NCBI GenBank assembly: GCA_963855995.1
Contig: OY979723.1
Span: forward strand, 2,795,001 to 2,859,000
Reading direction: 5' to 3'
Origin: Muricea muricata
Lineage: Eukaryota > Cnidaria > Anthozoa > Malacalcyonacea > Plexauridae
Length of the DNA: 64,000 bases
Positions 10,102 through 15,226 of the stretch are shown one piece after another (position 1 is the stretch's first letter; every line of letters begins with the position of its first letter). The position numbers were made by a program, and so were the translations under genes. The notes beneath the pieces are model-generated. The model saw only the letters and a program-made list of their open reading frames with translations. It was not told where the DNA came from and searched no databases.

Positions 10102-13100
10102 CTGAAAAAATAGAAAATGAAAACGAATCAGACATTGCGGTATGCAGGACTTCTTCTGCCGAGATAAGAGATGGATTACATTGGTGGCAACTTGGTTATT
10201 TCACGAAAATTTAACCGTTAATTATTAATCATTGGCTATTTTTGCGGTCGCCCTTGATCGCATAAGCACGCACGACATGCATATACCAGGACTTTCATTA
10301 AACTTACAGTTACGGAAAAGAACAGCGCGACATAATTTAGTCCCAAATCAAGTCCTTCCGAAAATATAAACATACATTACATAATGTATATACACAACGC
10401 GATACAATACAATATACAAATATATCCGAAAATATACACATACATAACATAACATAATTTTTACATTACATAATATAATATATTCATTAAGAATTCATAA
10501 GCAAATTACAAGGAGAAATCGGACCCGTATCAGTTCTGTATATTTGACATAGACTTGCGTTAAATTTCTTGCTTGTCAACTCTAAAACGTTATGCATGCC
10601 GGCGAGTGTACGGAATGATCATTTTAGAGGTGATATAGAAACCGCTGATTTTTACCAGAAGTATAAACACTCGGCCTCACCTCCAGTTTATAAATCTGAT
10701 ATAAACCTCCTCCGAGTGGTTGGTAAATATTAATATATCCAAATAAATATTACATAACAGGAACACACGTATATACATCAACATTACAGCATGTATATCA
10801 GTAGCAATTTATCTATAAACAGGTATTTTGCAAGGGGATTGATATTTACTACATATAGACACAATTTTGTAAGTTTTAGGTCGATCAATTTCTTAGCCAA
10901 AGGAACTGCACGTTCAGCTTGTTTTCATAAAATAAGTATGGCTTAGGTTTGAGATAAAGACTGAAGAGATGATTTGATATGATGAAATGCGAGGGTAATT
11001 GTTCCACTGAAAAATGGAACAAATGCATTTCTGGGAAAGCAAGAGTTTGTTTGTACAATACACGGCTACATGGCCATGAATTAACAAATGTTTGCTGTAA
11101 TCGATGTTTTCATCGGTTTATAAGTAAACTTGTTCATGTGAACTCTTCTAACACAGTGCCTCCCAGCCCAATCAATGCTTATAAACAAGTGAAATAATTT
11201 AAGTAACAAGCAATGGTTACCTCCCCACGATGCCGCAGCAAATCCTCCAAAAACGTACTGTCCAGACCCTATTAGAACAACAGTTGGTCCTTTGTTATCA
11301 CAGAGGTTGTGAAACGTGCTGCCTGCCCATCCATTAACAGAAGCTCTGTAACAAAGTTTTATTTCCTTGTTCTGTAGTGTAGAAGGAAGCCAGTCGTGCA
11401 GTTGTTCAATCCACCCTTTGTGACCTCGCAGTATAGTAGATTCGAAGAGCGGCTCTACATACGAGAATAAAGTCATGAAAGATACAGTCAGGCTCAGAGA
11501 AATACATATCTATACAAAACATTTAGTTTGCGAATTGCCACGGCGGTTTCAGTAACTGACCTGCTTCCAGTTCGAAAACAGATTGTGAAGTAAATCAGTC
11601 CCAACCCTCTTGACCAGAGCAATATATTGGCACAATTGATAAATTGAAACTTTTTCCGCGCTAGTACATTAGCTACGTTTAGGGTAAAAGTGTTCAGTTA
11701 TTGGTAAAAGTGTTCAAGTAAATGGAAACGCATGCATTGATCAGGTTAATTCTACGAATTCCAAAATCTAATTACCAAGGCAATCATACCTTTCCTGGTA
11801 CAAACTAAACCCGTATAGCCAGAGTTACAAATGCATTTGAATGATCCGTCTTCCTCATTGGAACAAATCCCTCCATTTTGGCAGGGAGATACTTCACATG
11901 GAGGAACTAAATCGCAATGAAAATTGTGATTTTTCCTGAAAATTCGACGTTTATTTCGCCTCTGAGGGAAACGGCCAGCCACAAGATAAATAAGGATGCA
12001 CGTGGCTCGTTACCTTTCTGAGAACAATCAAATCCTTTGAATCCATCTGGGCAATCACATTTAAAACAAGTTAAACCATCATCTGAACAATTACCATTGT
12101 TCTTACATGGCTGCTTGTCACAGGGACGAACTGTTAAAGAATTACAACCATTAATAAATGAACATTTTTATTTTTCAGTATATATATATATATATATATA
12201 TATATATATATATATATATATATATATATATATATATATATATATATAACAATAATTTGTGTTGGGTAATAAAAACCAATTATAAAGTGCTCAATGGATA
12301 TCCAGAGCATAATCAACAAATAAGACACAAAGACTTAGCAAGTCGTGTAAGGCATATTCATTACTATTTAGTTTCGTACTACACTTAGTGTAGCACTCTT
12401 CAGACAAATAGCCTATGTTATATATAGACTAGATTTATATATATATATATATAGACTAGAACTTTTCACTAAAAACTAAGTTCTTTTTTAGAACTTTTTT
12501 TTTGTTCAGAACTTTTCACTTTATGTAAACATATAACCAATAGTCATGTAACGTAACATAATACCTGATACATTTCCAGTGTCCTATGCAATGAATAAAT
12601 TAAACTCATCTGTCAGTCGCCTGATGATCGCCTAGTGCGTGAAACCCAGGGTAGCGACAGCAGCAAAAACTTGTCTGTTTCTTGTATATATATATATATA
12701 TATATATATATATATATATATATATATATATATATATATATATATATATATATATATATATATATATATATAATGTATATATATATATATATAATGTGCT
12801 AGTTTTGGTTAGCGAAATACAAAAGAGTGCTCAATGACATATAGACAGAGCGAAATGTACAATTGTGCAAAATACCTCAAAAACTTACCACTACAGTCTG
12901 TTTCATCCAGAGGGAATCTTCAGGTGATAGACCGGTCTATCACCTGAAGATTCCCTTTGGATGAAACAGACTGTAGTGGTAAGTTTTTGAGGTATTTTGC
13001 ACAATTATATATATATATATATATATATATATATATATATATATATATATATATATATATATATATATATATATATATATATATATATATATATATATAT

Positions 13101-15226: not shown

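What the first reader, a model, noticed from the sequence alone, without database searches (positions are those of the whole stretch)
12350..13939. Five hammerhead-ribozyme folds clustered in one intron region among (TA)n arrays
Seen: five sites (12350-12416 minus, 12616-12658 plus, 13516-13580 plus, 13680-13750 minus, 13867-13939 plus) each have CUGANGA, a stem II, GAAA, a 3-bp stem III with 3-4 base loop, GUA and a closing stem I. Copies 1/2 and 3/4 have different stem I sequences that both pair, and stem III changes (ACU/AGU, ACU/GGU, AUU/AGU) stay paired. Established: type I hammerheads with tiny stem III mark retrozymes and Penelope-like elements. Inference: these are remnants of such elements in TA repeats, with two unrelated ribozyme families (CUGAAGA and CUGAUGA) in 1.6 kb.
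Basis: partly seen in the sequence, partly recalled or inferred. Interest (0 to 1): 0.85.

Follow-up and report, generated by a model that had tools for sequence, protein, structure and literature searches.

The report
Paired hammerhead ribozymes of Penelope retrotransposons
The clustered self-cleaving RNA motifs are real: they look like the ends of several families of Penelope-type jumping genes that landed in one TA-rich stretch of an animal gene's intron, mostly as head-to-head pairs whose shape suggests how such elements insert.

Summary
The five hammerhead folds are real, and there are seven: two more sit in the palindrome 12839-13028. Six of the seven form three outward-facing pairs, one in each arm of three head-to-head inverted repeats; the seventh (12616-12658) is single. 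A strict descriptor finds 6 where 0.012 per 64 kb are expected. They fall into four families; F1 and F2 are related. In the window's own genome F1 flanks a 669-codon frame with RT-like motifs and a GIY-YIG-related C-terminus, one copy inverted, the other followed by a tail. These are pseudo-LTRs of Penelope-like elements (PLEs), a known home of minimal type I hammerheads: a new member of a known kind. The informative part is the architecture. In 14 of 15 head-to-head pairs one arm stops at an upstream site and the other carries the tail. In 9 of 11 F1 pairs the inner ends are unequal. Arms of a pair resemble each other more than re-dealt arms (P=0.001). That favours reverse transcription primed from both DNA ends of a break over fold-back self-priming. 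Against: one pair is short/short, one neighbour pair faces inward. No window site passes Rfam's cut-off, and ribozyme activity is untested.

The parts
12249..12423 (-). F2 element, left arm (RNA sense on minus), tail-bearing ('L') end; hammerhead 12350-12416 (core 12362-12403), tail with hairpin at about 12288-12309
12504..12684 (+). F4 element, single arm, 5'-truncated, short ('S') end abutting (TA)n; hammerhead 12616-12658 (U.U at base of stem II)
   Evidence: 98% copy at L041 3060-3241, directly behind frameshifted PLE-like coding pieces
12685..12793 (.). (TA)n array between F4 and F3
12794..12933 (-). F3 element, left arm, tail-bearing ('L') end; NEW hammerhead core 12892-12923
12934..13005 (+). 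F3 element, right arm, short ('S') end abutting (TA)n; NEW hammerhead core 12944-12975; arms meet with no spacer
13006..13238 (.). (TA)n array
13231..13337 (-). F2 element, inner part of left arm, cut off from 12249-12423 by the F4/F3 insertions in TA sequence
   Evidence: 107 nt, 96% complementary to 13400-13506; the interruption is inferred from reading the flanks
13400..13614 (+). F2 element, right arm, short ('S') end; hammerhead 13516-13580
13622..13753 (-). F1 element, left arm with part of the tail ('L' type, ends early in the tail); hammerhead 13680-13750
13754..13863 (.). spacer between F1 arms, made of repeats of a TTAATGTTCA-like unit
13864..13967 (+). F1 element, right arm, short ('S') end abutting (TA)n; hammerhead 13867-13938
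13968..14090 (.). (TA)n array
12006..12140 (-). EGF-like exon of a minus-strand host gene, one side of the intron that holds the cluster
   Evidence: PF00008, 23.2 bits, cut-off 21.5
14277..14414 (-). EGF-like exon on the other side of the intron, presumably of the same gene
   Evidence: PF00008, 28.9 bits, cut-off 21.5

Best explanation
The cluster is a nest of short insertions of four Penelope-like retrotransposon (PLE) families, each carrying the minimal type I hammerhead of its pseudo-LTR, in TA-rich DNA of one intron. Shown: motifs, pair architecture, linkage of F1 to a PLE-type open frame, two preferred 3' end points (S and L) either side of a conserved tail hairpin. Inferred: the PLE enzyme cuts both strands of AT-rich DNA; each free 3' end primes reverse transcription on a hammerhead-bearing RNA, starting inside the RNA at S on one side and at L on the other. 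Both cDNAs run toward the RNA 5' end and stop early or at that end. The two cDNA ends are then joined by microhomology or filler. The result is a head-to-head inverted pair with RNA sense pointing outward. If the start sites lie near the 5' end of the RNA, both cDNAs are only 70-200 nt long, which gives the mini-palindromes F1 and F3 of the window. The hammerhead probably processes tandem PLE transcripts; it need not cleave for insertion.
For: Identity: the F1 arm has at least 42 matches in the genome. At L039 it flanks a 669-codon frame with FDVVDFYPS and YRDDG (RT motifs recalled) on both sides, one copy inverted and abutting (TA)n, the other with a tail. PLE-frame pieces lie in 19 of 32 F1 loci, 10 of them with a piece at 90% identity or more. 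The frame's C-terminus aligns over 43 residues (E=7e-5) to a fragment in L040 that is GIY-YIG by Pfam over its cut-off. F4 and F3 copies follow 45-47%-identical PLE coding pieces in L041 and L020. Mechanism: S/L in 10 of 11 outward F1 pairs, plus F2 1 of 1, F3 2 of 2, F4b 1 of 1 = 14 of 15, P=0.0005 at 50:50. 17 of 23 L ends stop at one site as aligned. Inner ends are unequal in 9 of 11 F1 pairs, with 2-5 nt overlap in three, 0-5 nt between the arms in four. Arms of a pair are more alike than re-dealt arms, 0.982 vs 0.973, P=0.00115; both L040 arms share an allele seen in no other locus. Published: a purified PLE protein cuts and extends both strands of AT-rich DNA and starts at two adjacent internal sites (PMC11167929).
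Against: That paper saw no difference in start site between top and bottom strand, which does not predict the S/L rule. One pair (L042) is S/S, with 654 nt between the arms. One neighbouring pair (L044) is inward and L/L; its two arms also share a private allele, so it is not plainly two separate events. F1 and F3 in the window have co-terminal arms, as fold-back self-priming would give. Pfam and NCBIfam gave no RT or GIY-YIG match for the L039 frame itself, so RT rests on recalled motifs. Target-site duplications cannot be seen inside (TA)n. Only the best 40 of 143 F1 candidates were scored, so the sample leans to well-kept copies. The 15 pairs were recognised by their geometry, not by an unbiased scan; F3 and F4b pairs came by chance.
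Confidence: 0.7

Rival explanations
1. Fold-back self-priming: one cDNA (or a copy of an antisense transcript) folds on itself and is copied, giving a palindrome of two equal arms. This is the model put forward for inverted PLE copies in a bdelloid rotifer.
For: Proposed in PMC3846280 for head-to-head PLE copies with palindromes at the junction. The window's F3 palindrome has no spacer and its F1 arms are co-terminal.
Against: Predicts equal outer ends and equal inner ends. Observed: unequal outer ends (S/L) in 14 of 15 pairs, unequal inner ends in 9 of 11 F1 pairs. Even F3 in the window and in L040, co-terminal inside to within 3 nt, is S on one side and L on the other.
Confidence: 0.13
2. 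A ready-made inverted dimer is copied and inserted as a unit (non-autonomous foldback element), so pairs are inherited rather than made anew at each insertion.
For: The arrangement recurs at many loci; arms within a pair are alike.
Against: Each of the nine F1 pairs with unequal inner ends has its own truncation points.
Confidence: 0.07
3. The two arms of a pair are separate insertions of the same family into one TA hot spot, not one event.
For: TA arrays are hot spots: the window holds four families, L040 at least four. L042 (S/S, 654 nt between the arms) looks like this.
Against: In 7 of 11 F1 pairs the arms abut or overlap within 5 nt, orientation is outward in 11 of 12 F1 neighbour pairs, and arms of a pair resemble each other more than re-dealt arms.
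Confidence: 0.07
4. Retrozymes: small circular RNAs with hammerheads, reverse transcribed and inserted as tandem monomers.
For: Hammerheads are type I and the elements are short; this genome does hold a tandem ~240-bp hammerhead repeat flanked by (TA)n (L001).
Against: No tandem monomers at the window sites; F1 continues into a PLE frame upstream and downstream.
Confidence: 0.03

Closest known systems
Penelope-like elements with hammerheads in pseudo-LTRs (Cervera and de la Pena 2014, Lunse et al. 2017: content recalled, seen only as reference-list entries; reviewed in PMC7761336, passages seen)
   Same: Minimal type I hammerhead with tiny stem III in the repeat that flanks an RT/GIY-YIG frame
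   Different: Four families nested in one intron, three of them as mini head-to-head pairs; consistent S/L difference between the two arms; unequal inner ends
Endonuclease-containing Penelope elements of Adineta vaga (PMC3846280, passages seen)
   Same: Head-to-head inverted pLTRs, a 31-bp tail optionally on one of them, palindromes at the junction, preference for AT-rich targets
   Different: The paper favours self-priming and does not contain the word hammerhead; most F1 pairs here lack co-terminal arms
Poseidon PAc of Anolis in vitro (PMC11167929, parts 1-2 of 4 read)
   Same: Cleavage and extension of both strands of AT-rich DNA, internal start at two adjacent sites, tail equals the stretch between them, hammerhead at the start of the frame, cleavage not needed for insertion in vitro
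   Different: No start-site difference between strands was seen there; here opposite arms use different sites in 14 of 15 pairs
Animal non-LTR retrozymes (PMC7229834, parts 1-2 of 6 and passages seen)
   Same: Type I hammerhead, AT-rich short repeats, reported from corals, jellyfish, anemones, mussels and amphibians
   Different: Tandem 170-400-nt monomers, not inverted pairs tied to a PLE frame; 'inverted' does not occur in that text

Membership tests
Penelope-like element | Reverse-transcriptase frame beside the repeat | tested here: inconclusive
   L039 frame 3332-5341, 669 aa, uninterrupted, with FDVVDFYPS and YRDDG (motifs recalled); Pfam and NCBIfam show no RT match, PDB search none
Penelope-like element | C-terminal GIY-YIG endonuclease | tested here: met
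   Indirectly: L039 C-terminus aligns over 43 residues to an L040 fragment that matches PF01541 at 29.6 bits, cut-off 22.6; a direct Pfam scan of the L039 frame is negative
Penelope-like element | Pseudo-LTRs incl. an inverted one, tail on one | tested here: met
Penelope-like element | Hammerhead in the pLTR | tested here: met
   F1 core intact in 36 of 42 scorable arms (45 arms, 3 truncated inside the motif)
Penelope-like element | Target-site duplication | not testable with these tools
   Ends lie in (TA)n; a 21-bp direct repeat first taken for a TSD proved to be the shared tail hairpin
Penelope-like element | PLE frame linked to the window's F2 family | not tested
   F2 was queried in the genome once, unanswered; F2 is about 74% like F1 incl. 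the tail
Type I hammerhead ribozyme (Rfam RF00163) | Score at or above gathering cut-off | tested here: not met
   0 of 7 window sites; best 21.5 vs 34 bits. 50 other places in the genome do pass (74 of 54,994 candidates scored)
Type I hammerhead ribozyme (Rfam RF00163) | Conserved core and three stems kept by compensating changes | tested here: met
   (few independent changes; one measure does not beat its shuffles); U.U, C.A or U.C at the base of stem II in some families or copies
Type I hammerhead ribozyme (Rfam RF00163) | Self-cleavage after GUA | not testable with these tools
   Needs RNA work
Animal retrozyme | Tandem monomers of about 170-400 nt | tested here: not met
   Tandem-repeat scan, periods up to 500, shows none around the sites

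The most novel reading that the evidence does not exclude
PLE insertion is a two-ended reaction with a fixed division of labour: the two DNA ends of one break prime on the same kind of RNA at two different sites that flank a conserved hairpin (the tail), so each two-ended insertion is born as an S/L head-to-head pair; when the RNA is entered near its 5' end this yields stand-alone-looking ribozyme palindromes that carpet TA arrays. The pair geometry in any genome would then record the order and asymmetry of the two half-reactions.
Probability: 0.5. Interest if true: 0.65.

Novelty: new member of a known kind. Interest (0 to 1): 0.48.

Why it matters
[quoted passage not shown] the two papers seen here suggest different routes (self-priming versus target-primed synthesis on both strands). 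Short head-to-head pairs with unequal ends are natural records of the reaction and can be counted in any genome. They also warn that hammerhead hits in animal introns, even clustered and covarying ones, may simply be PLE ends, and that plus/minus ribozyme pairs follow from the insertion geometry.

Tried and rejected
Rejected: (1) a 21-bp target-site duplication around F2 (AATGGAWATCCAGAGCATAAT at 12293 and 13621): it is the tail hairpin of two related PLE families. (2) (TA)n made by the element itself through slippage: not needed, since TA flanks many S and L ends alike; one S end lies in a (TTTTA)n array (L049), which fits either microhomology-guided priming or slippage, so it stays open. (3) Ambisense viroid-like RNA: the minus/plus ribozymes are explained by inverted copies. 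(4) miRNA and other Rfam names at 12870-13022, all below their cut-offs, are long-hairpin artefacts of the F3 palindrome.

Led nowhere: exact search of viral contigs for an F1/F2 motif, 0 matches. PDB search with the L039 frame, 0 matches. Test for copies whose 5' end sits exactly at the ribozyme cleavage site: none of the 45 F1 arms does (the nearest, the internal L039 copy, starts 10 nt downstream), but the query contained the ribozyme, so cut copies were selected against: inconclusive. An unbiased count of pairs for F2, F3 and F4 and a random-region control could not be done.

Selection to keep in mind: the 11 hammerhead families were collected with a descriptor that demands pairing, so their pairing percentage (137 of 154 cells) is partly built in; the test uses F1 and F2, found similar by BLAST. 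Pairs: L019 was dropped from the S/L count because its left arm lacks the outer part; L044 is inward and not in the 15; the internal ORF-linked copy of L039 is not counted as an end. The L-end site is uncertain by a few bases because it runs into AT repeats; in L012 and L048 the last bases before it differ from the rest.

Full report
WHAT IS THERE. A strict descriptor (CUGANGA, stem II, GAAA, stem III of 3 bp or more, H17, stem I) finds 6 motifs in 64 kb, all between 12362 and 13926; 3452 simulated windows (order-2 Markov on the window) gave 41 hits, 0.012 per window. Two of the six are new: 12892-12923 minus and 12944-12975 plus. Rfam gives no match over a gathering score in the window and sub-threshold Hammerhead_1 matches at two sites. 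Thermodynamic folding is weak evidence.

ARCHITECTURE. Inverted-repeat analysis shows that six of the seven lie in three head-to-head palindromes: F2 (12327-12423 with 13507-13603, continued by 13231-13337 with 13400-13506), F3 (12839-12933 with 12934-13028, no spacer) and F1 (13645-13753 with 13864-13972). In each the RNA sense of the ribozyme points outward. The seventh, F4, is single. (TA)n arrays separate and flank them. F4 and F3 sit inside the left arm of F2, so F2 came first (inference from the flanks). All lie between two EGF-like exons of the minus strand, so presumably in an intron. The two arms of each palindrome differ at their outer ends: the right arm ends short (S), the left arm goes on for about 25-70 nt into a tail (L). 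The tails of F1, F2, F3, and of two more families, F4b and F9, fold into the same kind of hairpin, GCUC...GAGC with a 2-nt bulge on the 3' side; the inner stem is the same in F1 and F2 and differs in the other three.

FAMILY IN THE GENOME. The window lies in an unnamed 453-Mb assembly, where RF00163 scores at least 55 places, 50 of them over the cut-off, none of the listed ones in the window (74 of 54,994 candidates scored). The F1 arm has at least 42 matches at 95-100% identity, 40 of them over 101-104 of the 104 query bases (143 candidates, 40 scored). At L039 two F1 copies face outward around an open frame of 669 codons. The frame shows RT-like motifs (recalled) and its C-terminus aligns to a fragment in L040 that is GIY-YIG by Pfam; Pfam and NCBIfam do not match the L039 frame directly. 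PLE-frame pieces lie in 19 of 32 F1 loci, some of them from other PLE families at 29-55% identity. The window itself has no match to the frame. A copy of F4 (98%) and one of F3 directly follow more distant PLE coding pieces in L041 and L020. This is the pLTR organisation of Penelope-like elements described in PMC3846280 (passages seen), and hammerheads are known there (PMC7761336, passages seen; PMC11167929, parts 1-2 read).

RIBOZYME CONSTRAINT. F1 and F2 are about 74% alike. On a six-sequence alignment with the hammerhead structure, 92.5% of 134 cells pair, against 29-47% with the partners slid; four pairs change on both sides; the covariation score exceeds all 500 shuffles, but the number of double-change pairs does not. 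The F1 core is intact in 36 of 42 scorable arms. The six broken ones include both arms of the ORF-bearing L039 copy, with the same C-to-T change at the first core position, shared otherwise only by L020. So a copy with a broken core was inserted, if the change was in the RNA, as its presence in both arms suggests.

END POINTS. Of 45 F1 arms, 21 end S and 24 carry the tail; one of the latter is internal. 17 of the 23 true L ends stop at one site as aligned, three within 6 nt of it, three within the tail, the window's among these. In F1 both sites carry TATTATATTA and both often run into (TA)n. Among 11 outward F1 pairs 10 are S/L and one (L042) S/S. The window's F2 and F3, an F3 pair in L040 and an F4b pair in L051 are S/L as well: 14 of 15, P=0.0005 if the two states were drawn 50:50. 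The only inward F1 neighbours (L044) are L/L, and they too share a private allele. Inner ends differ in 9 of 11 F1 pairs. Between the arms there are 2-5 nt of overlap in three pairs, 0-5 nt in four, and longer stretches in four (17, 82, about 110 and 654 nt). Arms of a pair are more alike than arms re-dealt between pairs (0.982 vs 0.973, P=0.00115). Ten of 45 arms start within 2 nt of ATTAGAAC, 14 nt before the core, and two F3 palindromes at different loci are centred within 3 nt of one point: I read these points as RNA 5' ends (inference).

MECHANISM. Fold-back self-priming, put forward in PMC3846280, predicts arms equal at both ends and does not fit most pairs. Copying of a ready-made dimer predicts shared junctions and does not fit. 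Two half-reactions, each primed by one DNA end at a different internal site of the RNA and running to different lengths, fit all outward pairs but the S/S one; the inward L044 pair is not explained. PMC11167929 shows in vitro that a PLE protein cuts and extends both strands of AT-rich DNA and starts at two adjacent sites; it reports no strand difference in start site, so the S/L rule goes beyond it, or is in tension with it. PMC3846280 already notes that the tail is optionally present on one of the inverted pLTRs, so the asymmetry itself is not new as an observation. Searches of the held open-access library, judged from titles and abstracts, listed no paper that I recognised as describing S/L pairing as a rule; most subscription papers are not held, and the original PLE-hammerhead paper could not be opened.

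VERDICT. The finding is real and correctly placed near Penelope-like elements. It is a new member of a known kind. Its value lies in the pair geometry, which makes the insertion route of PLEs testable by counting. Confidence: identity about 0.9 for F1, somewhat lower for F2-F4; two-ended mechanism about 0.6.

Noticed in passing
L001 1400-2290 (G000:C1:118.24 Mb): A tandem ~240-bp hammerhead repeat (retrozyme-like) with an inverted copy in front of it, flanked by (TA)n on both sides: head-to-head arrangement outside the PLE families of the window.
   Followed up: partly
loci L001-L051, families F5-F11: At least eleven minimal type I hammerhead families in the window and the loci fetched from one genome; several have a U.U or C.A mismatch at the base of stem II followed by a good stem; a U.U there is reported for one axolotl family (PMC7229834).
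   Followed up: partly
window 2445-5476, 17356-18168, 37871-38704, 50202-50715, 28086-29598, 32989-34538: Other long inverted repeats (25 longest of 58 shown) without TA arrays at their ends; possibly DNA transposons of the foldback or MITE type.
   Followed up: partly
window 41507-42427 (-), 55938-56891 (+), 59254-60099 (+): Three look-alike single-frame 7tm_1 receptor frames (two over the Pfam cut-off, one just below), perhaps an expanded receptor family.
   Followed up: partly
window 6669-6743 and 20096-20202; 6847-7188 and 52431-52713: Two tandem-repeat units (29 bp and about 114-119 bp) recur at distant places of the window.
   Followed up: no
window 12504-13005 and L041 3060-3401: F4 short end, (TA)n and F3 tail-bearing arm occur side by side at two loci on different contigs; either a repeated hot-spot event or a shared duplication.
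   Followed up: no
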